Source: Kineosporia succinea
GTDB taxonomy: Bacteria > Actinomycetota > Actinomycetes > Actinomycetales > Kineosporiaceae
Assembly (NCBI RefSeq): GCF_030811555.1
Contig: NZ_JAUSQZ010000001.1
Span: 2,663,241-2,727,240, forward strand
DNA: 64,000 bases
Reading direction: 5' to 3'
Shown here: positions 1 to 47,314 of the stretch, in pieces
Numbering within the stretch: position 1 is the stretch's first letter
Layout of the letters: every line of letters begins with the position of its first letter
The notes under the pieces: generated by a model
Seen by the model: the letters and a program-made list of their open reading frames with translations, nothing else
What the model was told of the DNA's origin: nothing
The model's database searches: none
Made by a program: the position numbers and the translations under genes

Positions 1-168
1 CAGGTGGGTGACCCCGTGCCCGACGTCGAGCCAGGTGCGCACGATCGACTGCTGCGCGGTGGAGTCGGAGGTGTAGACCACGCGCGGATGCCGCAGCACG
101 GCCAGAAGACAGGCCACGAACGCGGGCAGGACGACCGCGGCGAGCACCCGGGGGGTTCGCTTCGGCAA
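1..168 (-). CDS. N-terminal fragment of a membrane protein (runs off the window)
   Basis: An open minus-strand frame enters the window at base 1 and reads back to a TTG at 166-168 or a GTG at 145-147; an in-frame TAG lies further upstream and there is no ATG. The translation starts with a basic stretch, then a hydrophobic segment (VLAAVVLPAFVACLLAVL) and continues RHPRVVYTSDSTAQQSIVRT, as at the first membrane span and following extracytoplasmic loop of a polytopic protein. Only about 50 residues are visible, so the family cannot be named. Start choice is uncertain because no clear ribosome binding site is seen. Confidence 0.5.
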   Translation of the reverse strand, partial: MPKRTPRVLAAVVLPAFVACLLAVLRHPRVVYTSDSTAQQSIVRTWLDVGHGVTHL

Positions 169-246
169 GGGGGCCCTTCGTCGCGGTCCGGTCGGCTCGC
201 GGCCAGACTAGAGCCTGCCCACCGGATCAGGGCCGGCTCGTACGGA

Positions 247-738
247 TCAGGGCGGGCTGGCGCCGGGGCAGTCGTCGCCGTCCGGGTCCAGCGCCTGGTG
301 GATGCGCTTGCCGATCTCGCCCAGGTGCCGCACCTGGGCCCGGGTCAGCGGGTCGATCACGAACTGGCGCACCGCGTCGGCGTGCCCGGGGGCGGTCGCC
401 ACCACCTTGTCCCACCCGGCGTCGGTGAGCGTGGCCACGGTGTAGCGCCCGTCGGCCGGGTCGGGGGCCCGCACCACCCAGCCCTGCTTCTCGAGCCGCT
501 TCACCACGTGCGACAGCCGCGACAGCGAACCGTTGGCCAGCAGCGCCAGGTAGCTCATGCGCAGCCTGCGGCCCTCGGCCTCGGACAGGCCGGCCATCAC
601 CGTGTACTCGAAGTGCGTGATGCCCGCATCGCGTTGCAGCTGGGCGTCGAGCGCGGCCGGGAGCATGAACACGATGCCGGCCATGGCCCTCCAGGAGGCC
701 AGCTCTTCGGGGTCCAGCCAGCGTGTTCCGTCGTTCAT
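247..738 (-). CDS. MarR-family transcriptional regulator
   Basis: A 163-residue protein with the MarR layout: an N-terminal helix (WLDPEELASWRAM), a winged helix-turn-helix in the middle (LSRLSHVVKRLEKQGWVVR as recognition helix, then DPADGRYTVATLTDAGWDKV as the wing) and a C-terminal dimerisation helix (QVRHLGEIGKRIHQAL). Length matches the family. It is divergent from the DoxX gene at 839, and the gap holds two matching TTGA-N4-TCAA dyads, so it most likely represses that gene and itself. The inducing ligand cannot be told from sequence. ATG start at 736-738. Confidence 0.9.
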   Translation of the reverse strand: MNDGTRWLDPEELASWRAMAGIVFMLPAALDAQLQRDAGITHFEYTVMAGLSEAEGRRLRMSYLALLANGSLSRLSHVVKRLEKQGWVVRAPDPADGRYTVATLTDAGWDKVVATAPGHADAVRQFVIDPLTRAQVRHLGEIGKRIHQALDPDGDDCPGASPP

Positions 739-766
739 GAGGACCAGCCTAAGCCAGCTCCATGAC

Positions 767-811
767 TTGACGCTTCAAGCTGAACGGCCCTACCTTCACT
801 TGAAGCATCAA
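767..811. promoter_or_regulatory. Twin MarR-type operators over the doxX promoter
   Basis: Two exact copies of the dyad TTGA-N4-TCAA lie at 767-778 and 800-811, 33 bp centre to centre, about three helical turns. A plausible plus-strand promoter sits among them: -35 TTGACG at 767-772 and -10 TACCTT at 791-796 with an 18-bp spacer. Binding at both dyads would block this promoter. Assignment to the adjacent MarR protein is inference from position. Confidence 0.6.
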
Positions 812-838
812 CTCAATCGAGCAAAGGGGAACACGGCG

Positions 839-1213
839 ATGAACGTCGTTCTGTGGGTGGTGGCGGCGCTCCTGGCCGGGGCGTTCCTGGCGGCCGGTGC
901 GATGAAGCTGCTGCAGCCGAAGGGCAAGCTGATCGAGAGCGGCATGGGCTGGGCCGCCGACTACAGCGACACCCAGGTGAAGCTGATCGGGGCCGTGGAG
1001 GTGCTGGGTGCGCTCGGCCTGATCCTGCCCGCCGCCCTCGACATCGCGCCGGTGCTCACGCCGCTCGCGGCCGCGGGCCTGTTCGTGACCATGGTCGGCG
1101 CCGTGGTCGTGCACCTGCGCCGGGGTGAGACCGGCGGTGCGGTGCCCGGTGTGGTGCTCGGCCTGCTCGCGCTGTTCGTCGCCGTGATGCGCTTCGGGCC
1201 GAACAGCTTCTAG
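839..1213 (+). CDS. DoxX family membrane protein
   Basis: A 124-residue protein with four predicted membrane helices (MNVVLWVVAALLAGAFLAAGAMKLL; VKLIGAVEVLGALGLILPAAL; LAAAGLFVTMVGAVVVHL; VLGLLALFVAVMRF). The GAMKLL turn after helix 1 and the G-A-V-E-V-L-G-A-L-G-L motif in helix 2 are typical of DoxX/DoxD-like proteins. A ribosome binding site (AAAGGGGA) sits about 10 bases before the ATG. Many DoxX proteins pair with MarR or Rrf2 repressors and are linked to oxidative or thiol stress; that role here is inference. Divergent from the MarR gene. Confidence 0.85.
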   Translation: MNVVLWVVAALLAGAFLAAGAMKLLQPKGKLIESGMGWAADYSDTQVKLIGAVEVLGALGLILPAALDIAPVLTPLAAAGLFVTMVGAVVVHLRRGETGGAVPGVVLGLLALFVAVMRFGPNSF

Positions 1214-32265: not shown

Positions 32266-32286
32266 CCTGAGTGAGGGCCACTCAGC
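32266..32286. promoter_or_regulatory. HAIR-like element 2 before dnaK
   Basis: CCTGAGT-N7-ACTCAGC is a perfect inner dyad (CTGAGT/ACTCAG) with the HAIR spacing but one changed position in each arm. It lies 24 bases before the dnaK start and 63 bp after element 1, six helical turns, so two HspR dimers could act together. Confidence 0.65.
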
Positions 32287-32309
32287 TCTTATCGAAGGGA
32301 ACCAAGATC

Positions 32310-34181
32310 ATGGCAAGAGCGGTCGGAATCGACCTCGGAACCACCAACTCCGTCGTGGCCGTGCTCGAGGGCGGCGAGCCCACCGTCATCGCGAACGCCG
32401 AGGGCGGTCGCACCACGCCGTCCGTCGTGGCGTTCGCCAAGTCCGGCGAGCCGCTGGTCGGCGAGGTCGCCAAGCGCCAGGCCGTCACGAACGTCGAGCG
32501 GACCATTCGCTCCGTCAAGCGGCACATGGGCACGGACTGGAACATCGCGATCGACGACAAGAAGTACACGTCGCAGGAGATCTCGGCCCGTGTGCTTCAG
32601 AAGCTCAAGCGCGACGCGGAGGAGTACCTCGGCGAGACCGTCACCGACGCGGTGATCACGGTCCCGGCCTACTTCAACGACTCACAGCGGCAGGCCACCA
32701 AGGAGGCCGGCGAGATCGCGGGCCTCAACGTGCGCCGCATCATCAACGAGCCCACCGCCGCGGCCCTCGCCTACGGTCTGGAGAAGGGCAAGGCTGACGA
32801 GCGCATCCTGGTCTTCGACCTCGGTGGCGGCACGTTCGACGTCTCCCTGCTCGAGGTCGACGTCGAAGAGGGTGGCAGCACCGCCATCCAGGTCGTCTCG
32901 ACCGCCGGTGACAACCACCTCGGTGGTGACGACTGGGACCAGCGCGTCATGGACCACCTGGTCAACACGGTGAAGAGCTCGACCGGTGTCGACCTGTCGA
33001 AAGACAAGATCGCCATGCAGCGTCTGCGTGAGGCCGCCGAGCAGGCGAAGAAGGAACTGTCCAGCGCGACGTCCACGACGATCTCGCTGCAGTACCTCTC
33101 GATGACCGAGAACGGTCCGGTCCACCTGGACGAGAAGCTCACCCGGGCCCAGTTCCAGCAGATGACGGCCGACCTGCTCGAGCGCACCAAGGCGCCGTTC
33201 CAGTCGGTCATCAAGGAGGCGGGCATCTCCGTCTCCGAGATCGACCACATCGTGCTCGTCGGTGGTTCCACGCGTATGCCCGCCGTGAGCGAGCTGGTGC
33301 GTGAGCTGACCGGTGGCAAGGAGCCCAACAAGGGCGTCAACCCGGACGAGGTCGTCGCCATCGGCGCCGCCCTGCAGGCCGGCGTCATCCTCGGAGACCG
33401 CAAAGACGTCCTGCTCCTCGACGTCACCCCGCTCAGCCTGGGCATCGAGACCAAGGGCGGCGTGATGACCAAGCTCATCCACCGCAACACCGCGATCCCG
33501 ACCAAGGCGTCCGAGGTCTTCACCACGGCCGACGACAACCAGCCGCAGGTGCTCATCCAGGTCTTCCAGGGTGAGCGTGAGCTGGCGCGCGACAACAAGC
33601 CGCTGGGCAACTTCGAGCTCACCGGTATCGCTCCCGCCCCCCGGGGCGTGCCGCAGATCGAGGTCACCTTCGACATCGACGCCGACGGCATCGTGAACGT
33701 GTCCGCGAAAGACCGCGGCACGGGCAAGGAGCAGGCGATGCGGATCACCGGCGGCTCGGCCCTGTCCAAGGACGAGATCGACCGCATGGTGAAGGAGGCC
33801 GAGCAGCACGCTGAGGAAGACCGTCAGCGTCGCGACGAGGCCGAGGTCCGCAACGGCGCCGAGCAGCTCGTCTACTCCACCGAGAAGTTCCTGCGCGACA
33901 GCGAGGACAAGCTTCCCGAAGAGGGCAAGGCCAAGGTCAACACGGCCATCGCCGAGCTGAAGACGGCGCTCGAGGGCACCGACATCAACGAGATCAAGGC
34001 CAAGCAGGAGGCCCTGTCCACGGCCAGCCAGGAACTCGGCGCGGCGCTCTACGCGCAGCAGTCCGAGGGTGGGGCCGAGGGTGCGGCCCCCGGTGCCGGC
34101 GCCGCGGGTGCGTCCGCCGGTAGCTCGTCGAAGAACGACGACGACGTGGTCGACGCCGAGATCGTCGACGAGGACAAGTGA
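32310..34181 (+). CDS. dnaK: Molecular chaperone DnaK (Hsp70)
   Basis: A 623-residue Hsp70. The N-terminal ATPase has [72 protein letters not shown] and [13 protein letters not shown]; the substrate domain starts after [14 protein letters not shown]; the C-terminal tail ends with the acidic DAEIVDEDK. It folds and protects proteins with GrpE and DnaJ and is the co-repressor partner of HspR in actinomycetes. The ribosome binding site GAAGGGA precedes the ATG. The stop overlaps grpE. Confidence 0.98.
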
Positions 34182-34942
34182 TGGGTGAGCAGACTGTCGA
34201 TCCGTCGGAGAACGGCTCCTCGGGGCCGGTAGTCCGCGACCGACGTCGGCTCGACCCGGAAACCGGTCAGGTGCGCGAGGAGTCGGCGGAAACGGGCGAG
34301 ACCACGGAGGGGGCCAAGGCCGGCAAGAAGCCGGCCCACGCCTCCGACGCCCCGGTCGACGCCAAGGCCGAGGCCGACGGCGAGAGCCCGGCCGAGGCCG
34401 ACGCCGAAGGTCAGGGCGACACCGGTACCAAGGCTGACGAGTCGTCCTCGGACGACGACGAGAAGGGAACGGAGGAGGTTTCGCTGGACGGCATCCTGGC
34501 CGACCTCGACGCCGCCCGGTCCTCGGCCGCGGAGCGACTCGACGACCTGCAGCGTCTGCAGGCCGAGTTCGTGAACTACCGGCGCCGGGTCGATCGTGAC
34601 CGCGACGTGTCGAAGGAGACGGCGATCGCCGGTGTGCTGGAGGCCCTGCTTCCGGTGCTCGACGACGTCCACCTCGCCCGTCAGCACGGCGATCTGGAGT
34701 CCGGCCCGTTCGCGGCGATCGCCGAGAAGCTCGAGGCGGTGCTGGAGCGGTTCGGTCTGGTCCGCTACGGCGAGGCCGGCGAGGAGTTCGACCCGTCCGT
34801 CCACGAGGCGCTGATGCGCACCGAGGCGGAACTGGCCGAAGGCACCACGACGACCACGGTCGTCCAGGTGCTGCAGCCCGGCTATCGCAGTGGTGACCGG
34901 GTGCTGCGGGCAGCCCGGGTCGCCGTGGCCGACCCAAACTGA
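34181..34942 (+). CDS. grpE: Nucleotide exchange factor GrpE
   Basis: A 253-residue GrpE, the DnaK nucleotide exchange factor. It has a long acidic, low-complexity N-terminus (about 100 residues rich in Glu, Asp, Ala), the coiled-coil with LQRLQAEFVNYRRRVDRDRD, and the C-terminal beta domain with FGLVRYGEAGEEFDPSVHEALM and VLQPGYRSGDRVLRAARVAVA. The ATG shares its A with the dnaK stop (TGATG). The N-terminal extension is longer than in E. coli (197 residues) but common in actinomycetes. Confidence 0.96.
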   Translation: MGEQTVDPSENGSSGPVVRDRRRLDPETGQVREESAETGETTEGAKAGKKPAHASDAPVDAKAEADGESPAEADAEGQGDTGTKADESSSDDDEKGTEEVSLDGILADLDAARSSAAERLDDLQRLQAEFVNYRRRVDRDRDVSKETAIAGVLEALLPVLDDVHLARQHGDLESGPFAAIAEKLEAVLERFGLVRYGEAGEEFDPSVHEALMRTEAELAEGTTTTTVVQVLQPGYRSGDRVLRAARVAVADPN

Positions 34943-34956
34943 CACCTCGCCCGTGA

Positions 34957-34997
34957 CCGGAGCGGGAATCGGCTGAGCCGGCCGATTCCCGCTCCGG
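34957..34997 (+). promoter_or_regulatory. 17-bp intercistronic stem-loop between grpE and dnaJ
   Basis: CCGGAGCGGGAATCGGC at 34957-34973 pairs perfectly with 34981-34997 over a seven-base loop. No T-run follows, so it is unlikely to end transcription fully. It may stabilise the dnaK-grpE part of the mRNA, mark a processing site or attenuate dnaJ and hspR expression. Confidence 0.7.
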
Positions 34998-35024
34998 GCC
35001 TCCCGGCGGCTCAAGGAGAGACAC

Positions 35025-36107
35025 ATGGCGGGCCAGGACTGGTTCGAAAAGGACTTCTACTCGGTACTCGGAGTGCCGCAGAACGCCAGTGCGGCAGACA
35101 TCAAGAAGGCGTACCGCAAGGTCGCGCGTACTCACCATCCGGACGCCAACCCGGGTGACAACGCGGCCGAGAAGCGGTTCAAGGAGGTCGGCGAGGCCTA
35201 CGCGGTGCTCTCCGACCCCGAGCAGCGCCAGCAGTACGACGCGATCCGCGCGATGTCCCGCGGCGGAGCACGTTTCACGGCCGGTGGAGCCGGTCCCGCC
35301 GGCGGTGCCAGTGGTGCGGGCTTCGAAGACCTGCTGGGCAACCTGTTCGGCGGCGGTGTGCCGGGCGCGGGCATGCCTGGTGCCGGTCAGCAGCGGGTGC
35401 GGTACACCACCACCGGTGGCCCGGGCGCGGGTCCGGGCCGGGGCGGCGCCGAGTCCCCGATCTTCGAAGACATGCTCAACGGCCTCTTCCCGCCCGGCAG
35501 CGGTGGCGGCAACGGCTACCGTTCCCCGCGCGGCCCGATGCGGGGCGGCGACCTCAACGCCACCGCCACCCTGACCTTCCGTCAGGCGATGGAGGGCGCA
35601 CAGCTCAATCTCCGGGTCGACGACCCGCAGGCCGGTCTGCGCACCATCACGGCACGCATCCCCGCCGGGGTGCGCGACGGCCAGAAGGTGCGCCTGCGCG
35701 GCAAGGGCAAGTCGTCCGACATGGGGGGTGAGCCGGGCGACCTGTGGGTCACGGTGTCGGTCGAGCCGCACCCGATCTTCACGCTCGACGGTGCCGACGT
35801 CCGCATCACCGTGCCGGTCACCTTCCCGGAGGCCGTCTTCGGCACCGAGATCGAGGTGCCCACCCCCGACGGTGCCCGGGTGAAGCTCAAGGTGCCCGCC
35901 GGAACGCCCTCCGGCCGCACCCTGCGGGCCCGGGGCCGAGGCGTGAAAACCGCCAAGCGCACCGGTGATCTGCTGGTGACGCTGCAGGTGGCGGTGCCCC
36001 AGCGGGTCGACAGCAAGGCCCGGGAGGCGCTGAACACGTTCGCGGAGGCGACGGCCGGGGAGAACCCCCGCTCCGGGCTCTTCGCCCATCTCGACGACAA
36101 ACCCTAG
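35025..36107 (+). CDS. dnaJ: DnaJ-family co-chaperone lacking the zinc finger (CbpA-like)
   Basis: A 360-residue J-domain protein. The J domain (residues about 10-72) has the HPD motif in [13 protein letters not shown] Gly-rich region with [12 protein letters not shown] and [12 protein letters not shown] follows, then two C-terminal beta domains ([55 protein letters not shown]). There is not a single CxxCxGxG motif, so it is a type II, CbpA-like protein instead of the zinc-finger DnaJ often found in dnaK operons. GAGAGA precedes the ATG. Confidence 0.93.
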
Positions 36108-36128
36108 GCAGGACACGGAGGCCCGGCG

Positions 36129-36596
36129 ATGGCTGACGAGATCAACGTCGAGTTCAGCGGCGAGTTCAGCGTCGACCCGGACGCGCCCATCTTCGTGATC
36201 TCGGTGGCGGCCCAGCTCGCCGGGATGCACCCGCAGACGCTGCGGCAGTACGACCGGCTCGGCCTGGTGACCCCGGGCCGGTCGGCCGGCCGGGGTCGCC
36301 GCTACTCGCCCCGCGACGTCGCGTCTCTGCGCGAGGTGCAGCGCCTTTCCCAGGAGGAGGGCGTGAACCTGGCCGGGATCAAGCGGATTCTCGATCTGGA
36401 GTACGAGAACCGGGCTCTGCGGGGCCAGGTCGACGCCCTGATGAAAGAGCTCCAGGTACTCCAGGCCAAACTGCGCGGTGCGGGCCGGGTGTTCGCGGCC
36501 GAACCGGGCGGCGACATCGTGGCGGTGGCCCCCGGGCGCCGCCCGCAGCGGCCTGTCACCTCGACGGCGCTGGTCGTGTGGCGTCCCGGCCGGTAG
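36129..36596 (+). CDS. hspR: Heat-shock repressor HspR (MerR family)
   Basis: A 155-residue MerR-type repressor. The winged helix starts PIFVISVAAQLAGMHPQTLRQYDRLGLVTPGRSAGRGRRYSPRDVASL, the exact HspR form, followed by LSQEEGVNLAGIKRIL and a coiled-coil (EYENRALRGQVDALMKELQVLQAKL). It represses the dnaK operon and clpB at HAIR sites with DnaK as co-repressor; three such sites are in this window (32203, 32266, 55301). Last gene of the operon. Confidence 0.97.
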   Translation: MADEINVEFSGEFSVDPDAPIFVISVAAQLAGMHPQTLRQYDRLGLVTPGRSAGRGRRYSPRDVASLREVQRLSQEEGVNLAGIKRILDLEYENRALRGQVDALMKELQVLQAKLRGAGRVFAAEPGGDIVAVAPGRRPQRPVTSTALVVWRPGR

Positions 36597-36601
36597 AACT
36601 G

Positions 36602-37090
36602 ATGACCATGGAATCAGATCTGCGTGCCCTCATCGATGAGATCGAAGACCAGGAGCGCCGTCTCCGGCTTCCCGGCTTCGACAACGACGACGCCTGGCAG
36701 ATCGGCATCATCCTGGTCGAGCTGGCCGCCTCCCGCCGCGCCCCGGTGACGGTCGACCTGCGCCGCAACGGCCAGCAGCTCTTCCACTACGCCCTGCCCG
36801 GCACCAACGCCGACAACGACGCCTGGATCCGCCGTAAGGCCGCCGTGGTCGACCGGTTCGGCCTCTCCTCGCTGCTCGTCGGGCGCCAGGCGCTCGCCGA
36901 CGGCGTCACCTTCGAAGAGCGTTTCCGCCTCGACCCGGCCGATTACGCCGCGCACGGCGGCTCGTTCCCGGTTCACGTGCACGGCGTCGGGGTGGTCGGA
37001 ACCGTGACGGTGTCGGGTCTGCCCGAGGTCGACGACCACATGATGGTCGTGGCCGGGCTCGAGCAGTATCTCGAAGACCTCAGTAAGTAG
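36602..37090 (+). CDS. UPF0303/heme-degrading-domain family protein
   Basis: A 162-residue protein of the UPF0303 (HbpS/DUF336-like) family. Features are DDAWQIGIILVELAASRRAPVTVDLRRNGQQLFHYALPGTNADNDAWIRRKAAVVDRFG and the Gly/His segment AAHGGSFPVHVHGVGVVGTVTVSGLPEVDDHMMVV near the C-terminus. Related proteins bind haem or cobalamin-like ligands, but no activity can be assigned. It starts five bases after hspR and may be read with the heat-shock operon. The end overlaps the convergent membrane protein gene by 11 bases. Confidence 0.8.
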   Translation: MTMESDLRALIDEIEDQERRLRLPGFDNDDAWQIGIILVELAASRRAPVTVDLRRNGQQLFHYALPGTNADNDAWIRRKAAVVDRFGLSSLLVGRQALADGVTFEERFRLDPADYAAHGGSFPVHVHGVGVVGTVTVSGLPEVDDHMMVVAGLEQYLEDLSK

Positions 37091-37556: not shown

Positions 37557-37660
37557 GACCGATTTCCCCGTATTGACCGTTTGGGTACGGAATCCTCTGT
37601 TACCTTACTTCAACCCAAGGTCACGAACGCCAGTTTCTGCATCGCTGGAGGGTGGCAAGG

Positions 37661-38398
37661 ATGAATCCGCGGCAGCGGCGCGGCGTGCTGCTCATGGGAG
37701 TCGCCGTTCTCGGTGCGGTGGCTGTCTTCCTGCTCATCGCCGGCTATGTGAGCGACATTGGCCACCGGGTCGGCCCGATGACCACCAGCTACCGCTTCAC
37801 CGACGAGGTGAAGAAGTACGCCCCGATCACCGCCGACGACATCGAAGAGGTCGAGCTTCCCTCGAAATGGTTGCCCGAGGCGGCGATCCAGTCGTTCGAC
37901 ACCTCCCGCGGCCTGGTCGCCACCAGCGACATCCCGGCCGGGGCGATGCTGCAGGAGGGCATGGCCTCGTCGCCGCCCGAGCTGAAACCCGGCCAGAGCG
38001 AGATCGCCATCCTGATCGACGCCGAGACCGGCGTCGGTGGCAAGATCCAGACCGGCGACCTGGTCGACATCTACGGCACGTTCAGCGTGAGCAGCACCGA
38101 CGCGCAGGGCGGCAGCGAGAAGGCCGACCAGGCGCGGGTGATCGTCAGCAACGCCCAGGTGCTCGCGATCGGGGCGCTGCAGAAGATCGACTCCCCCGAC
38201 CAGGAGGAGTTCCGCCAGACCGAGGTCGTGCCCGTCACCTTCGCCCTCGACCGCGAAGACAGCCTGAAGGTCACCTACGCCGAGAGTTTCGCCACCAAGG
38301 TCCGGCTCGCCCTGGTCGCCCCGGGCACGCGCTCGCAGCCGCCGGGCAGCAACGGCGTGCTCGAGGGCTCCCAGCTCCTGAAGGCAGGCCGAGGATGA
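37661..38398 (+). CDS. cpaB: Flp pilus assembly protein CpaB/RcpC
   Basis: A 245-residue CpaB-like protein, first gene of the Tad operon. One membrane span (GVLLMGVAVLGAVAVFLLIAGYV) leads to an SAF-like domain (YAPITADDIEEVELPSKWLP... LVATSDIPAGAMLQEGM) and the RcpC domain (QSEIAILIDAETGVGGKIQTGDLVDIYGTFSV). In actinomycetes, which lack an outer-membrane secretin, it probably acts in the membrane or wall during pilus assembly. GGAGGG precedes the ATG at 37661; an upstream GTG at 37652 is possible. The 3' end overlaps the next gene (ATGA). Confidence 0.88.
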   Translation: MNPRQRRGVLLMGVAVLGAVAVFLLIAGYVSDIGHRVGPMTTSYRFTDEVKKYAPITADDIEEVELPSKWLPEAAIQSFDTSRGLVATSDIPAGAMLQEGMASSPPELKPGQSEIAILIDAETGVGGKIQTGDLVDIYGTFSVSSTDAQGGSEKADQARVIVSNAQVLAIGALQKIDSPDQEEFRQTEVVPVTFALDREDSLKVTYAESFATKVRLALVAPGTRSQPPGSNGVLEGSQLLKAGRG

Positions 38399-38616
38399 AC
38401 CGGCAGCAGCCGGGCCGAGCGACGAGCCGGCCGCAGCCGAAACCGCAGCCCCAGCCGAAACCGCAGCCGAAACCGCAGCCGCAGCCGCAGCCGAAACCCC
38501 AGCCCCAGCCGCAGCCGAAACCCCAGCCCCAGCCGCAGCCGAAACCGCAGCACCAGCCCCAGCCCCAGCCGAAATCGAAACCGCAGCCGGGCCGCCGCAG
38601 CCGGGGCGCGAGATGA
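38395..38616 (+). CDS. QP/KP-repeat small basic protein inside the Tad operon
   Basis: A 73-residue protein built almost only of Pro, Gln and Lys: after MNRQQPGRATSR come repeats of the form PQPKPQPQPKPQP, ending PGRRSRGAR. The start overlaps the cpaB stop and the stop overlaps the next start, each by ATGA, exactly like the other operon genes, which argues that it is translated. At DNA level a 24-bp unit is perfectly duplicated at 38491-38514 and 38515-38538. No membrane span. The composition recalls the extended Pro-rich part of TonB or wall-spanning linkers; function unknown. Confidence 0.65.
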   Translation: MNRQQPGRATSRPQPKPQPQPKPQPKPQPQPQPKPQPQPQPKPQPQPQPKPQHQPQPQPKSKPQPGRRSRGAR

Positions 38617-40184
38617 ACCGCCGCCTGCTCCTCGGCAGCGCCGACGAGCTCGTGGTGCAACGTGTCTCGTCGGTCTGCGAAGAACTCGGCGACGAACTGG
38701 TGCACGTCTGCGTCACCTCCAACGAGGTGCCCGACGCGGTCTCCGGTTTCCAGCCCGACGTGCTGATCCTGGCCGAGAGCCTGGGCCCGGTACCGGTTCT
38801 CGACCTGATCCGGCAGATCGCCCGGCAAGACCCGTTCGTCGGCATCCTGCTGCTCAGCTCCACCTCCGATCCGGAGCTGTTCCGGGTCGCGATGGAGGCC
38901 GGCGCCCGCAGCATCGCCCCGCTCGGCTTCACCATCGACGACCTGGGCCAGCGCATCGAGAGTGCCGCGGCCTGGGCCGGCATCGTGCGCAGCCACATCG
39001 CCGGCGACACCTCCCGCGTGCTGGGCAGCGGTCACGTGGTGGCCCTGGCCGGCAGCAAGGGCGGCGTCGGCACCAGCACCCTGGCCGTGCACACCGCCCT
39101 CGAGGCCGCCGCCGACGGCCGCCGTACCTGCCTCGTCGACCTCGACCTGCAGACCGGTGACCTCTCCACCCTCCTGAACATCAGCCACCGCCGCGACGTC
39201 ACCGATCTGATCGGCCTGGTCGGCGAGATCTCCGGGCAGACCCTCGACGACGTCCTGTTCCGCCACACCTCCGGGCTGCACGTCCTGCTCGGCCCGCGCG
39301 AGGGCGAACGCGCCGAGGAGATCACCGAGGCCGTGGGCCGCGCGGTGATCGGTGCCCTGAAGTCTCGGTTCGACGTGGTGGTGGTCGACGTCGGCAGCGT
39401 GCTCACCCCGGCCGGCGCGTCCGCGGTCGAGATCGCCGACCGCGCCGTGCTGGTCGCCACCCCCGACGTGCTGAGCATGCGCGGGTGCCGCCGCACCGCC
39501 CGCCTGTGGGACCGGCTGCGGCTGCGGCCCGAGAAAGACGTCACCGTGCTGCTCAACCGCATCTCCCGGGGTGTGGAGGTGCAACCCGACCTGGCCGCCC
39601 GGCTGGCGCGACTGCCCATCAGCGAGGTGGGCGTCCCCGCGTCCTTCCGCTCGTTCGAGGCCGCCGCCAACACCGGCGACCCCCAGCGGCTCGTCGACCG
39701 CGACACCCGCCGCGCCCTGGCCCGGGTGGCCGAGTCACTCGGAGTCCGTCAACCCGCCGAAACTGCCCGCCGATCGGCCGAAACCGGCCGTCGGGCCGCG
39801 CGCCGTCGTGACGCCGGGCAGGTGGCCATCGAATTCATGGGCCTGCTGCCCCTTCTCGGCATCGTGCTGGCCTGCCTCGTCCAGGGCGTGCTGATCGGCT
39901 ACGGCCACGTGCTCGCCGGGCAGGCGGCGGCCGCGGCGGCGCGGGTGGCGGTCTCTCCCGACCGGAGCGACGGCGACATCGAGGCCCGGGCCCGTCAGGA
40001 ACTGCCCGGCGCCTGGCAGGACGGGCTGACGGTCACGGTCGGAGACCGCTGGTCGGACCCGGACTCCGAGGTCACGGTGCGCGTCACCACCCCGTCGTTC
40101 ATCCCGGGCGTCACCGGTCTTTTCGGTGACGCGCTGATCGCCGAGTCCACCGCCCAGATGCGGTTCGAGGGGCGCCGGCCATGA
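38613..40184 (+). CDS. TadZ/CpaE ATPase fused to a TadE-like pseudopilin
   Basis: A 523-residue fusion. Residues about 1-125 are a receiver-like domain (DVLILAESLGPVPVLDLI), and 135-380 are a MinD/ParA-type ATPase with deviant Walker A AGSKGGVGTST, LVDLDLQTGD and VVVVDVGS, together a typical TadZ. Residues about 400-523 are a TadE-like pseudopilin: RDAGQVAIEFMGLLPLLGIV gives Gly402|Gln403 with Glu407 at +5, the class III prepilin cleavage pattern, then a membrane helix and an extracytoplasmic tail. Prepilin peptidase could thus release the pilin part. No separate start for the TadE part is seen. Confidence 0.85.
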   Translation: MNRRLLLGSADELVVQRVSSVCEELGDELVHVCVTSNEVPDAVSGFQPDVLILAESLGPVPVLDLIRQIARQDPFVGILLLSSTSDPELFRVAMEAGARSIAPLGFTIDDLGQRIESAAAWAGIVRSHIAGDTSRVLGSGHVVALAGSKGGVGTSTLAVHTALEAAADGRRTCLVDLDLQTGDLSTLLNISHRRDVTDLIGLVGEISGQTLDDVLFRHTSGLHVLLGPREGERAEEITEAVGRAVIGALKSRFDVVVVDVGSVLTPAGASAVEIADRAVLVATPDVLSMRGCRRTARLWDRLRLRPEKDVTVLLNRISRGVEVQPDLAARLARLPISEVGVPASFRSFEAAANTGDPQRLVDRDTRRALARVAESLGVRQPAETARRSAETGRRAARRRDAGQVAIEFMGLLPLLGIVLACLVQGVLIGYGHVLAGQAAAAAARVAVSPDRSDGDIEARARQELPGAWQDGLTVTVGDRWSDPDSEVTVRVTTPSFIPGVTGLFGDALIAESTAQMRFEGRRP

Positions 40185-40530
40185 AGGAGCGGGGGCAGGC
40201 ATCGATCGAGTTGCTCGGCGCCATACCGTTCATCGCCCTCGCCTTCCTCGCCGCCCTGCAGCTGACCGTCGCGGCCGCCACCGCCCAGGCCGCCAGTGCG
40301 GCCGCCCGGGCCGCCGCCCGCACGGCCAGCCAGGGCGACGGCGACCCGGCCGCCTCGGCGCGCCGGAGCGTCCCCGATTGGCTCGAAGACGATCTGGCGG
40401 TCGAGATCGGCGGCGGGGAGAGCCCTTCGGTGCAGGTCACCGTGACCATGCCGATCGTGCTGCCCGGTCTGGGCGGTGGCCCGCAGGTGCACCGCACCGC
40501 CTGGTTCGAGAGCGAGACGGCGAGGGCGCC

Positions 40531-40540
<10 letters not shown>
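40181..40540 (+). CDS. TadE-like minor pseudopilin
   Basis: A 119-residue TadE-family protein. KERGQASIELLGAIPFIALAFLAALQL has the prepilin cleavage site after Gly with Glu at +5 and the following membrane helix; the outside part ends in VTVTMPIVLPGLGG. TadE-type proteins are minor pilins or assembly factors of the Flp pilus. The start overlaps the fusion gene stop by ATGA, and the 3' end overlaps tadA by ten bases. Confidence 0.85.
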
Positions 40541-41840
<1,300 letters not shown>

Positions 41841-41844
<4 letters not shown>

Positions 41845-42755
41845 TCCTCGCCCTGGCGGCGGTCACCCTGCTGGTGGCCGTGATCGGTTGTCTGCAGTGG
41901 GTTCTCGGCGCCAACGAGCGGGAGGCGCTGACCAGCCGCACGGCCCTCGAGGTGGTCGAGCGGTCGGGGGCGCGGTGGGTCAACCGGCTCGATGCGCGCC
42001 TCCGGCGCACCTGGCACGGGCGGTGGTTGCAGCTGCGCCTCGACCGCGCCGGGGTGCGGTGGCGAATGGGGGACGTGTGGGTCGCCCTGGCGGGTCTCGC
42101 GGTGGTGGTGTTCGTGGTCGCCTCCCGGATGCTGAGCTGGTGGTTCGCCGTGCTCGCGGCCGCCGCCGCGGTGCGGCTGGCGCTGACGGTGCTCGACCGG
42201 CGCGAGTCGCGGCGCCGGGAGGCGTTCGTGGCCCAGCTGCCCGAGGTGGCCCGCGTGCTCTCCAACGCCACCTCGGCCGGGCTGGCGCTGCGCTCGGCGA
42301 TCCGGATGGCGGGCGAGGACCTCGACGAGCCGGCCTCGTCGGAGATGTCGCGCCTGGCCCACGAACTCGACGTCGGCACCCCGTTGAACGATGCGCTCGA
42401 CCATCTCCAGCAGCGCCTGCCCAGTCGTGAGTTGTCGCTGCTGACAAGAACTCTCATCATCCAGGCGCGGGCCGGCGGTGCGGTGGTGACGGCTCTGCGC
42501 GGTATGTCCGACACCCTGGAGGCCCGTAAGGACCTGCGCCGAGAGGTACGCACCATGCTCTCCGGCGCGGTGTTCACCAGCTGGATCGTGCTCATCCTGG
42601 GGGCCGGCTCGCTGCTGATGATGAACGTGATCGCCCCGGGCACGCTGAACAAGGTCACGTCGTCGCTGATCGGCCAGATCATCCTGGTGCTCGCGCTGGG
42701 GATGTACGCGGCCGGGTTCTGGATGATCCGCCGCACCACCCGGATCGACGTCTGA
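41841..42755 (+). CDS. tadB: Tad pilus inner-membrane protein TadB
   Basis: A 304-residue T2SSF-domain protein. There is an N-terminal span (MILALAAVTLLVAVIGCLQWVLG), two central spans (VWVALAGLAVVVFVVASRML; WFAVLAAAAAVRLAL), the cytosolic domain with AQLPEVARVLSNATSAGLALRSAIRMAGEDLDEP and ELDVGTPLNDALDHLQQRL, and two C-terminal spans. It forms the membrane platform with TadC. The GTG overlaps tadA by four bases. Confidence 0.93.
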
Positions 42756-43648
42756 TGAGCGGGCACGGGCTGGCCCTGGGGATGGCCGCGCTGCTGGTCT
42801 ATCTCTTCGGCCTGTACGGGTGGCAGCTGCTCAAGGCCCCGCCCGAGGTCGCCCTGCCCGACACCGGTTCGGTGCCGGTGGTGCGCACCAGCCGCTTCCC
42901 GCTGGTGTCGCGGTTCTACCGGTTCCTCGGCCGCCGCACCGGCCCGGCCCTCAGTGGTCTGCTCGGCCCACGCTGGCGCCTGGAGGTGCGCAACCTGCTG
43001 GCCGCCGCCGGGCAGCCGCGTGATCTGGACGTGGCCGGGTTCGCCGAGCTGCAGGGTGCCTACGCGGTGCTCGGCCTGCTCGGCGGCCTGCTGCTGGTGG
43101 TGCGCGGCCTACCGACGCTCGCCGCCCTGGCCGCCCTGCTGCTCGTGGCCTATCCCACGATCTGGCTGTGGAGTGAGGCCCAGCGCCGGCAGCGCCGCAT
43201 CGAGCAGGAGCTGCCCGACTTCCTCGACGTGCTGGCGATCACCGTCACGGCCGGGCTGGGCTTCCGGGCGGCGATGGAACGGGTGGGGGAGACGCTCGAG
43301 GGGCCGCTCGCCGAGGAGGTCCGGCGCACGATGCGCCGGATGGACATCGGGGTGCACCGCCGCGAGGCGTTCCTCGAACTGCGCGACCGCAACCCCCGTT
43401 CGTCCACCATGGGGCTGTTCGTCACCGCGATGATCCAGGCCGAGGAGCTGGGCGCACCGCTGGCCGACACCCTGAACCAGCTGGCCGAGGACATGCGCCG
43501 GGAGTTCGCCCAGATCGCGCGGCGCCGGGCGGCGCGGGCCGCGCCGCGGGTCAGCCTGATCATCACCATGGTGATCATGCCGGCGGTGGTCGCGCTGATC
43601 GTGCTGGCGCTGTTCCTGGGCTCCGACGTGGATCTGGGGTCGTTGTGA
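42755..43648 (+). CDS. tadC: Tad pilus inner-membrane protein TadC
   Basis: A 297-residue T2SSF-domain protein with the same architecture as TadB: an N-terminal span, AVLGLLGGLLLVVRGLP and LAALLLVAYPTIWLWSEA in the middle, the cytosolic part EQELPDFLDVLAITVTAGLGFRAAMERVGE with MDIGVHRREAFLELRDR, and a C-terminal span (VSLIITMVIMPAVVALIVLALFLG). ATG overlaps the tadB stop (TGATG) and its own stop overlaps the kinase gene (GTGA). Confidence 0.93.
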   Translation: MSGHGLALGMAALLVYLFGLYGWQLLKAPPEVALPDTGSVPVVRTSRFPLVSRFYRFLGRRTGPALSGLLGPRWRLEVRNLLAAAGQPRDLDVAGFAELQGAYAVLGLLGGLLLVVRGLPTLAALAALLLVAYPTIWLWSEAQRRQRRIEQELPDFLDVLAITVTAGLGFRAAMERVGETLEGPLAEEVRRTMRRMDIGVHRREAFLELRDRNPRSSTMGLFVTAMIQAEELGAPLADTLNQLAEDMRREFAQIARRRAARAAPRVSLIITMVIMPAVVALIVLALFLGSDVDLGSL

Positions 43649-44823
43649 GCGAGGTCGGCCGGCTCGCCCGCTACCTGCTGATCCCGCGCGTCGCGGCCCC
43701 GGTGCTGACCCTGGTCGCGCTGCGGGCTGATCCGCCGGCGGTCGCACTGCTGCTGGGGGCGCTGTCCGGTCTGAACCTCCTGGCCCTGCGGTTCTGGACG
43801 CGGTTGCCGCACGGTCGGCTGCATCTGCTGCTCGACCAGGTGCTGGCTCTGGGTGTGCTGGGCGTCGTGGGGTCCGGGACGCCGATGGTGCTGTACCTGA
43901 TGGCGAGTGGTGTGCTGGCCGGGCTGACCTACCGGGCCCGGCCCGTTCTCGTCGCGGGCATCCTCACCTCGCTGACCTACGGGGGCTTCCTGATGCTGCG
44001 GGCCGGATACGTGCCGGGGGAGATCGACCTCCACACCACGATCACCCTGCCCGCCCTGCTGCTCGGGGCGGGGCCCGCCGGGGTGGCGGTGCGGCGGCTG
44101 CTGGTGCGGCAGGAACGCACGGCCACGCAGCTCTGGAAGCTTCGGCGCACCCATGCGGTTCGGGAAGAACGGCTGCGCGTCGCCCGCGACCTGCACGACT
44201 CGCTGACCAAGGATCTGCACGGTGTCTGGCTGCTCAGTCGTACTCTGCGGGCAGCACTGGAACGTGGTGACCAGGATTCGGTGCGCGAGGCCGCCGGGGT
44301 GATCGGTGAGACCGCCCAGGGACTGGCCGGGCAGTCGCGGATGGTGATCCGGGGGTTGCGTGAATCGGGTCCGGCCGTGGGTGGTCTCGTGGAGGCGCTG
44401 CACGAGCGGGCTGCGGGGGTGTCGGCGGGGCATCAGCTGGCCGTCGAAATTCAAGCCCACGAGGTGGATCTCGACGATGCTTCCCGGAATGTGCTGCTGA
44501 TGGTTGCTTCCGAGGCGCTGCACAACGTGGTCAAGCACGCGCGGGCCCGCACGGTGACCCTGACGCTGGCGGCGCGCGCTGATGCGGTGGTGCTGGAGAT
44601 CGAGGACGACGGGGTCGGTTTCGCGATCACGCCGGGTTTCGGTCCGGGGCACTACGGGCTCCTGGGCATGCGGGAGCGGGCGGCCCGCAGCGGCGGGGAG
44701 TTCGCGATCCGCAGTGCGCCGGGCGACGGGACGAGGGTGCGGCTGACGCTGCCGGTGCGAAGATCTCCGGTCCCCGCTCGCGGTGAGGCGTTTCTCCACC
44801 GGGCCCGGGTCAGTCGTGCCTGA
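43645..44823 (+). CDS. NarX-type sensor histidine kinase in the Tad operon
   Basis: A 392-residue kinase of the HisKA_3 class. About five N-terminal hydrophobic segments (from VAAPVLTLVALRADPPAVALLLGALSGLNLLAL to LPALLLGAGPAGVAVRRLL) form a membrane sensor. The phosphoacceptor is in LRVARDLHDSLTKDLHGVWLLSR, and the ATPase has MVASEALHNVVKHARA, IEDDGVGF and GHYGLLGMRERAARSGG. Overlaps on both sides show it is part of the pilus operon, so it probably senses a surface or membrane cue for piliation. Confidence 0.92.
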   Translation: MSEVGRLARYLLIPRVAAPVLTLVALRADPPAVALLLGALSGLNLLALRFWTRLPHGRLHLLLDQVLALGVLGVVGSGTPMVLYLMASGVLAGLTYRARPVLVAGILTSLTYGGFLMLRAGYVPGEIDLHTTITLPALLLGAGPAGVAVRRLLVRQERTATQLWKLRRTHAVREERLRVARDLHDSLTKDLHGVWLLSRTLRAALERGDQDSVREAAGVIGETAQGLAGQSRMVIRGLRESGPAVGGLVEALHERAAGVSAGHQLAVEIQAHEVDLDDASRNVLLMVASEALHNVVKHARARTVTLTLAARADAVVLEIEDDGVGFAITPGFGPGHYGLLGMRERAARSGGEFAIRSAPGDGTRVRLTLPVRRSPVPARGEAFLHRARVSRA

Positions 44824-45511
44824 GCGCGAAGCCCGTTCACCCGTGACGGTTCTCGTGGCCGACGACAACCCGGTGATCCGGATCGGCCTGCGTCAGCTGC
44901 TCACCGCCGAGCCGGCCACCCGGCTGGTGGGCGAGGCCCGTGACGGTGCCGAGGCCCTGCGCCGGGCCCGGGAGCTGCGGCCCGACGTGGTGCTGCTCGA
45001 CGTGCGCATGCCCGGCACCTCCGGCCTCGACGTGCTGCCCGAGCTGGCCACCTTCACCTGCGTGCTGATGCTGACCTCGAGCGAGGAGGACGAGACGGTG
45101 CGCCGGGCCGTGCGGGACGGGGCGCGGGGCTACCTGGTCTACGGCACGTTCGACGAGAGCACCGTGGTGCAGAACATTCTCGCGGCGGCCGGGGGCGGGT
45201 CGGTGTTCAGCGCCTCGGCGGTGCGGGTGCTGGCGTCGGAGCGATCCGCCGCGGCCCCGGCGGTGCGGGCCGCCGACCCGGCCGTGGCGGCGCTGCTGTC
45301 CGACCGGGAGGCCGGGGTGATGGAACTGCTCGCCGCCGGGCGCACGAACGGGGAGATCGCCCAGCTGCTCTTCGTGGCCCCGAAGACGGTGAAGAACCAC
45401 GTGAACCGGATCTTCGCCAAGCTCGGGGCGCGCAGTCGCCGCGAGGCGGTGGAGATTTGGGCCCGCGCTGGGCCCGCCGGGCCCTCGTCCGGCCCGGCCC
45501 CGCGCCACTAG
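44816..45511 (+). CDS. NarL/LuxR-type response regulator lacking the conserved receiver lysine
   Basis: A 231-residue regulator. The receiver has VADDNPVIRIGLRQLL, the Asp in VVLLDVRMPG and LTSSEEDE, but the usual GYLLK motif reads GYLVYG, so Tyr replaces the switch Lys. The C-terminal LuxR helix-turn-helix (LLSDREAGVMELLAAGRTNGEIAQLLFVAPKTVKNHVNRIFAKLGARSR) is complete. GTG at 44816 overlaps the kinase stop; another GTG at 44843 begins right at the receiver. It likely controls the pilus operon or the pilin gene just downstream. Confidence 0.9.
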   Translation: MPEREARSPVTVLVADDNPVIRIGLRQLLTAEPATRLVGEARDGAEALRRARELRPDVVLLDVRMPGTSGLDVLPELATFTCVLMLTSSEEDETVRRAVRDGARGYLVYGTFDESTVVQNILAAAGGGSVFSASAVRVLASERSAAAPAVRAADPAVAALLSDREAGVMELLAAGRTNGEIAQLLFVAPKTVKNHVNRIFAKLGARSRREAVEIWARAGPAGPSSGPAPRH

Positions 45512-45538: not shown

Positions 45539-45739
45539 ATGATCCAGATCTACCTCGGGTTGCTGGCTTTGGGGCACCGGGTCCGGCGTCGCGACGACCG
45601 CGGGCAGACCGCGGCCGAGTACATGGGCATCGTCGTGATCGTGGCCATCATCATCGTGGCCATCGCGACCAGCGGTATCGGCACCACCATCGCCGGCAAC
45701 ATCACCACCAAGATCTCGCAGATCTTCGGCGCCACCTGA
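45539..45739 (+). CDS. flp: Flp family type IVb pilin
   Basis: A 66-residue major pilin. The prepilin site RGQTAAEYMGIVVIVAIIIVAI has Gly|Gln with Glu at +5 followed by Tyr, the Flp signature, then the membrane helix and a short polar tail ending IFGAT. The leader is about 22 residues. GGGGAG lies eight bases before the ATG. It is separated from the regulator gene by only 27 bases. Confidence 0.93.
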   Translation: MIQIYLGLLALGHRVRRRDDRGQTAAEYMGIVVIVAIIIVAIATSGIGTTIAGNITTKISQIFGAT

Positions 45740-45747
45740 CGTCCGCG

Positions 45748-46455
45748 GTGCTGCGCGGCCGGGCTACGGGGCGGGAGGAGGGCCAGATCGCTCCGGCCCT
45801 CCTCCTCGTGGTGGTCGCACTGCTCTTCCTCGGCCTGCTCTTCGCCCAGGTGGGCAGCGCCTCCGACCAGAAGACCCAGACCCAGACGGCGGCCGACTCG
45901 GCGGCCGTGGCCGCGACCCATCAGTTCCGCGACGCCACCGTGCTCCGGGCCGCGGCCACGATCCCCTGGCAGGTGCGTCCCCTGTTCGCGCCCCTGACCG
46001 CCTGGGAACCCGACCTGACCGCCGCCGCCTGCGCCGCCGCACAACGCAACTGGGGTGAGAACCCGCACGAGGGGGCCGGACTCGGCTGCACCGACGTCTC
46101 GCTGTCGAGCACCGGCGACGGCGTGCGGGTGGAGGTGCTGGCCCCGCCCGGCCAGGTCGTCGACGGCCCGGCCGACGTGGCGGCACAACGGGCCCGGGCG
46201 AGCGTGGTCTCCCGGGTCACGTTCGTGCGCTGCCCCCAGTTCGCGCAGCCGAAGGCGGCGGCGCTGGCCCACTGGCTCGTCGACCGCGTGGCGGAGCGGC
46301 TCGGTCGCGCCTCCGGCTGTTTCACCCCGGTCGACGGGATCAACCTGGGCATCCTCGACACCTGGCCGTTCCCGCCGGCCCGGGCCGCGATCGGCCCGCC
46401 GGAAGAGATCCTCGACGCGGTGCGTGAGAGCTTCCGCATCGAGATCATCGACTGA
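45748..46455 (+). CDS. TadG-like pilus-associated protein
   Basis: A 235-residue protein with an N-terminal pseudopilin-like segment EEGQIAPALLLVVVALLFLGLLFAQVGSASDQKTQTQTAADSAAVAA, typical of TadG/Rv3654c-like proteins; +5 is Ala instead of Glu. The outside part has five Cys (TAAACAAA, GLGCTD, VRCPQF, SGCFTP), unusual in this operon. The GTG at 45748 starts eight bases after the Flp stop and has no clear ribosome binding site, suggesting coupled translation. It overlaps the convergent gene by 11 bases. Confidence 0.75.
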   Translation: MLRGRATGREEGQIAPALLLVVVALLFLGLLFAQVGSASDQKTQTQTAADSAAVAATHQFRDATVLRAAATIPWQVRPLFAPLTAWEPDLTAAACAAAQRNWGENPHEGAGLGCTDVSLSSTGDGVRVEVLAPPGQVVDGPADVAAQRARASVVSRVTFVRCPQFAQPKAAALAHWLVDRVAERLGRASGCFTPVDGINLGILDTWPFPPARAAIGPPEEILDAVRESFRIEIID

Positions 46456-47314
46456 AGCCGCAGAACACGCAGCGCGCGGCGGCGGCCACCAGCGGGGCGC
46501 CGCACCAGTCGCAGGGGCTGTGTGGCTGCACCGGGACCCGCGCGACCACCCAGGCCGCCGGGTCTTTCGGCACCGCGACGAACTCGGTGGCCTCCTCGTC
46601 GCCCCAGAAGCCGGGCAGGTCGAGCTCGGTGCGCACCCGGTGAGGTTCCTCGGTGCCGCCCAGCACACCCTCCAGCGACGGCGGCAGCGGCTGCGGCCCG
46701 GCGATCAGCACCCGCACCCCGACCGGCCCGAAGTGCGCCCGGGTGAACCCGTCCGACGACGGGTCGCGGGAGATCTGGCGCACGGCCGCGGCCGGGGTGA
46801 GCTGCACCGCGAACTGCCGCCGCCCGGGCAGTACCGAGGCCAGGTGCTGCCCGATGCCGACGCCGGGCAGGTCCAGCCCGGACACCGAGCGCAGCACCGC
46901 GATGTCGACGAGCTCGGCGGCCAGCGTGGGCAGCAGCGAGACCACGAGCGACGTCGGCCGGCCCGCGACCCCCAGGGCCTGTTCGGCGATGCGGGCGAGG
47001 GCGTAGTGGCCGAGCGGTCCGCCGGGCAGCGCGACCACGGTGATCTCCACCTCCAGAGCGGCCTGGGCCAGGGCCATCTCGCGGGCCACGGCCACCTCGG
47101 CGCTCTCCCCGCAGAGCACGATGAGCCGGGACCCGTCGAACGTCATGCTCTCGATCAGGCCGAGCCGGGTGGCGGCCGGCAGCCTCAGCAGCCCGCCCGG
47201 CGCGTCGTCGCCCGACCAGGTGCTGAGGTCGTCGGCGAGCATGATCCGGCTCGGCCGTTCGATCTCCTCACGCATCACCGGCGGCGGGATGCGTGGCTGC
47301 GGTTCGGTACTCAT
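46445..47314 (-). CDS. Hypothetical protein with C-terminal zinc ribbon
   Basis: A 289-residue soluble protein without signal or membrane span. The C-terminal 25 residues hold a zinc-ribbon pair, CDWCG and CVFCGF. The body contains MTFDGSRLIVLCGESAEVAVAREMALAQAALEVEITVVALPGGPLGHYALARIAEQALG, which reads like an alternating alpha/beta fold, and VVSLLPTLAAELVDIAVLRSV. No family recognised. It is the last gene of a three-gene operon (47874, 47311, 46445) facing the Tad operon; its start overlaps the lipoprotein stop by four bases. Confidence 0.65.
   Translation of the reverse strand: MSTEPQPRIPPPVMREEIERPSRIMLADDLSTWSGDDAPGGLLRLPAATRLGLIESMTFDGSRLIVLCGESAEVAVAREMALAQAALEVEITVVALPGGPLGHYALARIAEQALGVAGRPTSLVVSLLPTLAAELVDIAVLRSVSGLDLPGVGIGQHLASVLPGRRQFAVQLTPAAAVRQISRDPSSDGFTRAHFGPVGVRVLIAGPQPLPPSLEGVLGGTEEPHRVRTELDLPGFWGDEEATEFVAVPKDPAAWVVARVPVQPHSPCDWCGAPLVAAAARCVFCGFSR

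What the first reader, a model, noticed from the sequence alone, without database searches (positions are those of the whole stretch)
38613..40184. TadZ-TadE fusion with a prepilin cleavage site at the joint
A cytoplasmic TadZ ATPase runs in frame into a TadE pseudopilin, with Gly402|Gln403-Val-Ala-Ile-Glu407 at the junction. Prepilin peptidase could cut the two apart, guaranteeing equal amounts and placing the ATPase at the assembly site. Such an arrangement is not part of the usual Tad model.
Basis: partly seen in the sequence, partly recalled or inferred. Interest (0 to 1): 0.65.

Follow-up and report, generated by a model that had tools for sequence, protein, structure and literature searches.

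The report
Pilus ATPase fused to minor pilin
In many actinobacteria the ATPase that organises a hair-like surface pilus and one of the pilus's minor subunits are encoded as a single protein, joined at a site that the cell's pilin-trimming enzyme would be expected to cut, so a whole enzyme seems to take the place of a short disposable leader peptide.

Summary
One open frame, 38613-40184 (523 aa), holds a two-domain TadZ (top PDB match 3fkq), a short basic linker, and a TadE-like pseudopilin starting at Gly402|Gln403-Val-Ala-Ile-Glu407. It is neither a sequencing error nor a one-off. Of 146 distinct relatives of this TadZ subfamily that I held, 89 are fused and 57 are not, in at least three classes of Actinomycetota. 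My site finder did not ask for Gly, yet Gly is at -1 in 89 of 89 fused proteins, at the end of a linker that otherwise varies in length and sequence; +5 is Glu in 85 and Asp in 4. Among the 57 unfused relatives a separate TadE follows tadZ in 49 by script and 2 more by eye, usually with its own 10-30 aa leader and a G|xxxxE site, and unfused loci carry on average one more free pseudopilin gene. Fusion state changed repeatedly on a tree. Best reading: TadZ stands in for the leader, and prepilin peptidase releases TadE. Cleavage is inferred, not shown. None of nine literature searches showed a report of it. New variant of a known kind.

The parts
37652..38398 (+). rcpC/cpaB, upstream gene of the tad operon
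   Evidence: PF16976 E 3.3e-20; TIGR03177 84 bits, over its cut-off 71
38613..40184 (+). tadZ-tadE fusion gene, 523 aa plus stop
38646..38951 (+). receiver-like N-terminal domain of TadZ (residues 12-113)
   Evidence: Response_reg E 0.00054, under its cut-off; matched by 20 of 24 homologues at E up to 0.01; AF2 model and 3fkq match
39033..39746 (+). MinD/ParA-type ATPase domain of TadZ (about residues 141-378), deviant Walker A K149GGVGTS
   Evidence: AAA_31 E 1.7e-9; K149, G150, G151, G153, D176, D259 invariant in 78 aligned fused proteins
39747..39818 (+). basic linker (about residues 379-402) ending in Gly402; predicted cut between bases 39818 and 39819
   Evidence: Gly at -1 in 89 of 89 fused homologues; G402 is the only invariant column outside the TadZ domain in 78 aligned
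39819..40181 (+). TadE-like pseudopilin (residues 403-523), transmembrane helix first
   Evidence: PF07811 on the half alone E 0.0029, matched by 58 of 78 homologous halves at E up to 0.01; AF2 pLDDT 92.6, helix 2-44 plus small alpha/beta head
40181..40540 (+). second, free TadE/TadF-like pseudopilin; MKERG|QASIE read as a 5-aa leader
   Evidence: PF07811 E 0.0096, under cut-off; NF041390 E 1.2e-5, under cut-off; 34% identical to the fused TadE region
40531..41844 (+). tadA motor ATPase (ATG at 40531 chosen by eye)
   Evidence: PF00437 E 2.8e-68
41841..42755 (+). tadB platform protein
   Evidence: PF00482 E 4.1e-18
42755..43648 (+). tadC platform protein
   Evidence: PF00482 E 4.4e-25
45539..45739 (+). 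flp-like major pilin, DRG|QTAAEY site read in the sequence
   Evidence: Flp_Fap E 0.00025, under its cut-off; similar frames in 47 of 193 loci searched
45652..46455 (+). TadE/G-like gene
   Evidence: PF13400 E 1.4e-7

Best explanation
A genuine, old gene fusion in a tad (type IVc) pilus operon. The whole TadZ (receiver-like domain plus MinD-like ATPase) occupies the position of the leader peptide of the pseudopilin TadE. The chain is inserted with TadZ in the cytoplasm and the TadE helix in the membrane; the cytoplasm-facing active site of prepilin peptidase cuts after Gly402, giving TadZ with a short basic tail and a mature TadE that begins with Gln403 and carries Glu407 at +5. Shown here: the fusion, its conservation, the invariant Gly, the interchange with separate genes. 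Inferred: topology, cleavage, and the likely benefit (TadZ and TadE are delivered together to one membrane site before they part).
For: Fusion kept in 89 of 146 distinct subfamily members held; 21 of the 23 other order-level fused proteins are only 28-38% identical to the window's. Gly at -1 in 89 of 89 by a finder that did not require it, against 15.1% Gly in the rest of the last 60 linker residues; -3 Asp or Glu in 94%. Linker 15-236 aa, median 33, yet Gly402 is the only invariant column outside TadZ in 78 aligned. Unfused relatives: a separate TadE just downstream in 49 of 57 by script and 2 by eye; 46 of the 49 have a start within -17 to +6 bases of the tadZ stop, 40 of 49 a leader of 30 aa or less. 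Free pseudopilins between tadZ and tadA: fused loci 0 (20) or 1 (25) of 45; unfused 0 (1), 1 (8), 2 (24) of 33: the fusion absorbs one gene. The genome has a prepilin peptidase, PF06750 plus PF01478. Published account: leader variable in length, ends in Gly or Ala, active site on the cytoplasmic side very close to the membrane (passages of PMC10191384).
Against: No direct evidence of cleavage. A review gives leaders as 6-51 residues (passage of PMC6916266); 402 is far outside, and a folded ATPase might hinder the peptidase. The window's TadE half is under the curated cut-offs, and no solved relative of its fold was found. The only prepilin peptidase found lies about 2.6 Mb away beside a pilM gene and is of PilD type. 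The acid at +5 was required by my finder, and for unfused TadE also Gly or Ala at -1, so those two counts are biased. The 89 sequences are related, so no probability can be given. Two of six genomes of the genus lack a close relative (best E 4.4e-22 and 2.6e-21), so the fused gene is dispensable.
Confidence: 0.74

Rival explanations
1. The fusion stays whole: TadE's helix is a permanent membrane anchor that tethers TadZ at the machine, and the pseudopilin domain works as a fixed platform part rather than as a released subunit.
For: Topology fits (TadZ inside, helix in membrane). CpaE is described as membrane-associated through a C-terminal amphipathic helix (passage of PMC13170226), so a stronger anchor is conceivable. 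Minor pilins TadE/TadF were not detected in sheared M. luteus pili (passage of PMC4322843).
Against: A tether needs no Gly at -1, yet Gly is there in 89 of 89. Relatives with separate genes have a TadE with its own leader and such a site.
Confidence: 0.16
2. TadE is also or only made by internal translation start inside the linker, so no cleavage of the long form is needed.
For: An in-frame GTG lies 31 codons before the cut in the window, and in-frame GTGs lie 27-29 codons before it in both congeners. 52 of 89 fused genes have some in-frame start codon in the stretch examined.
Against: 37 of 89 fused genes have no in-frame ATG, GTG or TTG in codons -40 to -5; only 9 have an ATG; 15 of 89 have a start with a Shine-Dalgarno-like stretch, the window's not among them. 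Third codon positions in the linker are freely variable in the Kineosporia trio.
Confidence: 0.07
3. Assembly or annotation artefact: two genes joined by a missed stop or frameshift.
Against: Same fusion in independent assemblies of two congeners and in many other genera; codon-wise conservation through the joint.
Confidence: 0.01

Closest known systems
TadZ/CpaE of Tad (type IVc) pili; PDB 3fkq from E. rectale
   Same: Receiver-like domain plus MinD/ParA ATPase with deviant Walker A; lies in a tad operon; top Foldseek match 3fkq, E 4.9e-15, 384 alignment columns, 16% identity (that 3fkq is the solved TadZ is recalled, its title in the call says NtrC-like two-domain protein)
   Different: The rmsd to 3fkq is 8.5 over both domains, so their orientation differs; TadZ in the passages seen is stand-alone, here about 145 residues of linker and pseudopilin follow
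TadE/TadF pseudopilins (PF07811, NF041390)
   Same: G|xxxxE site, one N-terminal helix, small head; next to a second pseudopilin
   Different: No start codon and leader of its own; a 402-residue enzyme stands in the leader's place; the window's copy scores under the curated cut-offs
Ssd/CpaE homologue of Actinobacteria (TIGR03815)
   Same: Same superfamily, residues 138-374 match with 76 bits; the genome also has a separate unfused TadZ-like ATPase (C1:4604876, 388 aa frame)
   Different: 76 bits is below the curated 154.45; the stand-alone ATPases compared are only distantly related (E 1e-22 and the like)
Other fusions in type IV filament loci: TadB-TadC in M. luteus tad-2 (passage of PMC4322843) and PilM-PilN in C. 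difficile (passage of PMC6916266)
   Same: Partners of one filament machine joined in one chain
   Different: The passages mention no processing site between the halves

Membership tests
TadZ | MinD/ParA-type ATPase domain with deviant Walker A (KGGVGTS) | tested here: met
   motif read in the sequence; that TadZ has an atypical Walker A is from passages of PMC6668835 and PMC13170226
TadZ | N-terminal atypical receiver domain | tested here: met
   AF2 model aligns to two-domain 3fkq; Response_reg in 20 of 24 at E up to 0.01, in the window's under its cut-off. PF16968 TadZ_N matched only 1 of 24
TadZ | Gene in a tad operon with rcpC, tadA, tadB, tadC | tested here: met
   in the 78 long named loci examined rcpC is upstream in 78 and tadA downstream in 70
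TIGR03815 Ssd equivalog | Score over curated cut-off 154.45 bits | tested here: not met
   76 bits
TadE pseudopilin (PF07811) | Score over curated cut-off 22.9 bits | tested here: not met
   window half alone 18.1 bits, E 0.0029; 58 of 78 homologous halves match at E up to 0.01. Called TadE-like through these homologues, not by the window's own score
TadE pseudopilin | Class III signal: Gly at -1, acid at +5, hydrophobic helix | tested here: met
TadE pseudopilin | Pilin-like shape: long N-terminal helix with a small head | tested here: inconclusive
   AF2 shows helix 2-44 plus alpha/beta head, pLDDT 92.6; no pilin among the structure matches shown
Prepilin peptidase substrate | Cut after Gly by prepilin peptidase | not testable with these tools
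   needs proteomics or blotting; a peptidase gene is present

The most novel reading that the evidence does not exclude
Prepilin peptidase acts here as a maturation switch for a folded cytoplasmic enzyme: TadZ-TadE first assembles as a membrane-anchored TadZ array, and the cut after Gly402 both frees TadE to prime the pilus and changes TadZ from tethered to free, so one proteolytic step times pilus initiation.
Probability: 0.22. Interest if true: 0.78.

Novelty: new variant of a known kind. Interest (0 to 1): 0.58.

Why it matters
A folded ATPase of about 400 residues as a prepilin leader would be far beyond the 6-51 residues given in a review of monoderm type IV pili (passage of PMC6916266). 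[quoted passage not shown] a natural fusion of TadZ with TadE, made or undone several times, points to close co-localisation of the two and gives a simple handle (one glycine, one product ratio) to test it in non-pathogenic Streptomyces or Kineosporia. It also warns that domain scans can hide the missing tadE: Pfam at E 0.01 does not detect the TadE part in the full-length window protein.

Tried and rejected
Looked for further TadZ-TadE fusions in the same genome. The other PF07811 places in long open frames (L002, L004) are not joined to an ATPase, as read by eye in the frames listed; a search with the whole protein found one other TadZ-like ATPase, without a pilin tail. Plasmid collection: 42 records match, none covers 80% of the query. 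Viral contigs: 17 pattern matches, no relative. Fold comparison of the TadE half: best Foldseek E 1.4, VIA-align Z up to 6.8 to pantothenate synthetases and peptidases, judged background; no pilin in the rows shown. Sequence profile of TadE against PDB: three matches at E 0.35 to 1, photosystem II protein K, judged chance. Internal start as a general mechanism: rejected on 37 of 89 without a start. Artefact: rejected.

Errors of my own that were corrected: L049 was first called fused by my finder (Pro-rich tail) and relabelled unfused; L008 and L039 are truncated copies of L006 and L014 and were dropped. So 92 fused of 148 became 89 of 146. The first tree gave 9 changes with those errors, the second 11. 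L163 has Glu at +4 and L133 has its TadE in another frame than my filter allowed; both were read by eye only. The fused share is not a prevalence: the 80 named loci are the capped best matches to a fused query, and the genome search gave loci for a limited number of matches a call. Whether the fusion occurs outside Actinomycetota was not surveyed beyond the plasmid and viral collections.

Full report
What is there. Window bases 38613-40184 are one open frame of 523 codons plus stop. Residues 1 to about 378 are a TadZ: a receiver-like domain and a MinD/ParA-type ATPase. The AlphaFold2 model of the whole chain (mean pLDDT 92.1, pTM 0.62; weak at 131-137 and around 381-400) has as its best PDB match 3fkq, a two-domain protein of Eubacterium rectale (E 4.9e-15, TM-score 0.41 by query and 0.57 by target, rmsd 8.5). 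That 3fkq is the solved TadZ is recalled; a solved E. rectale TadZ is cited in passages of PMC6668835 and PMC13170226. Residues 379-402 are a basic linker. Residues 403-523 are a TadE-like pseudopilin: helix 2-44 and a small alpha/beta head when modelled alone (pLDDT 92.6). The operon is rcpC, tadZ-tadE, a second free pseudopilin, tadA, tadB, tadC, a histidine kinase and response regulator, an flp-like and a TadE/G-like gene.

Which organism. The window lies in an 8.07 Mb contig. A same-genus genome has a contig of the same length, 800,538 bases, as Kineosporia babensis JCM 31032, and another matches K. rhizophila JCM 9960, 749,192 bases; so the window is most likely from Kineosporia. Of the six genomes of the genus, four hold the fused gene (one of them twice) and two have only distant ATPases.

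Is the frame real. The two close congeners are 87-88% identical and fused. Between the three, third codon positions in the linker differ in 64-68% of 22-25 codons, first in 5-13%, second in 14-24%: the linker is translated, and its length changes by whole codons (cut after residue 402, 399 or 398).

How widespread. In 396 genomes of the order, 26 hold 27 loci at E 1e-45 or better: 24 fused, 2 with separate genes (L049, L050), 1 cut off by a contig end (L053). Sixteen weaker matches looked at include 12 stand-alone frames of 387-424 aa and four longer mechanical frames; none showed a pilin helix behind the ATPase. The class sample had 69 of 394 genomes at E 1e-30 and the phylum sample 25 of 396; fusion state was read only for loci fetched. 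A scan of named genomes kept the best 80 of 527 loci; those found fused include Streptomyces, Actinacidiphila, Actinomadura, Thermobifida, Streptomonospora, Aeromicrobium, Solirubrobacter, Nitriliruptoraceae and Egibacteraceae records. Together: 158 loci, 148 distinct, 146 after cleaning, 89 fused and 57 unfused. Fused members with names fall in Actinomycetes, Nitriliruptoria and Thermoleophilia.

The joint. The site finder asked only for an acid at +5 and a hydrophobic stretch. Gly is at -1 in 89 of 89; +1 is Gln 49, Ala 26, Ser 9, others 5; +5 Glu 85, Asp 4; -3 Asp 75%, Glu 19%; net charge of -15 to -1 has median +4. All 89 joints were printed and look like pseudopilin starts. Positions -4 to -20 have entropies of 2.3-3.7 bits, position -1 zero. 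The rest of the last 60 linker residues holds 15.1% Gly. In 78 aligned fused proteins the 12 invariant columns are 11 in TadZ and Gly402. The sequences are related, so no probability is given; the 24 order-level proteins, of which 21 are 28-38% identical to the window's, all have Gly.

The natural experiment. In 49 of the 57 unfused relatives a separate TadE follows the tadZ stop: 46 of the 49 have a start between -17 and +6 bases of it; taking the longest leader that starts near the stop, 40 of 49 are 10-30 aa and the rest up to 94. An example is DRG|QVAIEFLGMVP in several Streptomyces. The filter asked for Gly or Ala at -1 and an acid at +5. Two more were seen by eye, one locus ends at the contig end, and five distant ones (L189-L192, L194) have none found. 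Between tadZ and tadA, fused loci hold 0 (20) or 1 (25) free pseudopilin gene of 45 loci; unfused hold 0 (1), 1 (8) or 2 (24) of 33 (same filter, so zeros may be misses). On the tree of the TadZ part alone the state needs 11 changes, at least 6 forced by starred branches. Rooted on four distant TadZ, the deepest branches after one unfused row (L194) are fused, which favours one old fusion with repeated splitting; the trees are quick ones with long branches, so direction is not firm.

Mechanism. A prepilin leader is cytoplasmic and is cut by a membrane peptidase whose active site faces the cytoplasm (passages of PMC10191384). TadE and TadF are known substrates (title of Tomich 2006 as cited in PMC4322843). 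The fused TadZ lies where the leader should be. The genome has one Peptidase_A24 match, of PilD type, about 2.6 Mb away beside a pilM gene; peptidase genes away from the tad genes are described as usual in actinobacteria (passages of PMC4322843). The inference of cutting rests on the invariance of Gly and the interchange with separate genes. The rival of a permanent tether explains neither; internal initiation fails in 37 of 89 genes, though Kineosporia has in-frame GTGs.

What it might be for. [quoted passage not shown] A chain that carries both would bring TadE to that place. Equal amounts as a purpose is not supported by that model. This paragraph is inference.

Novelty. Nine searches (listings with titles, abstract starts and counts seen) and passages of PMC4322843, PMC3244431, PMC10191384, PMC6668835, PMC9531140, PMC6916266 and PMC13170226 showed no mention of a TadZ-TadE fusion. 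The other listed papers were not opened; subscription papers and preprints are not in that library, and domain databases may well list the architecture. So: a known pair of proteins in a new arrangement, a new variant of a known kind.

Noticed in passing
window 46445-47314 (-): A 289-aa protein without Pfam match at E 0.01 and with a C-terminal CDWCG...CVFC motif has similar frames in 33 of 193 loci searched; in the 7 named records among the 10 listed it lies upstream of tadZ on the same strand. It may be an undescribed Tad-linked gene.
   Followed up: partly
window 43645-44823 and 44783-45511 (+): A histidine kinase and a LuxR-type response regulator sit between tadC and flp; similar frames occur in 29 and 28 of 193 loci, downstream of tadZ in the rows listed, suggesting a regulator tied to this pilus.
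   Followed up: partly
window 32271-37090 (+): The tad operon lies behind dnaK, grpE, dnaJ, a MerR-type regulator and an HbpS-like gene; the dnaJ neighbour was found only in the two Kineosporia loci L065 and L090 among 193 loci with short flanks.
   Followed up: partly
window 38430-38603: A tandem array of GC-rich units (periods 6, 24 and 36) fills most of the gap between rcpC and the fusion gene.
   Followed up: partly
L015 and L026 (both genome G008): One congener carries two fused TadZ-TadE paralogues on the same contig, the second only 38% identical to the window's.
   Followed up: no
L145:1363-2166 (-) and 121-1170 (-): The only prepilin peptidase found in the genome is of PilD type with the A24_N_bact domain and lies beside a pilM gene (PF11104 E 2.1e-46), so it may have to serve a type IVa and the Tad pilus together.
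   Followed up: partly
L134: A record titled Glycomyces fuscus groups inside Nocardiopsis on the TadZ tree; possibly a misnamed genome.
   Followed up: no
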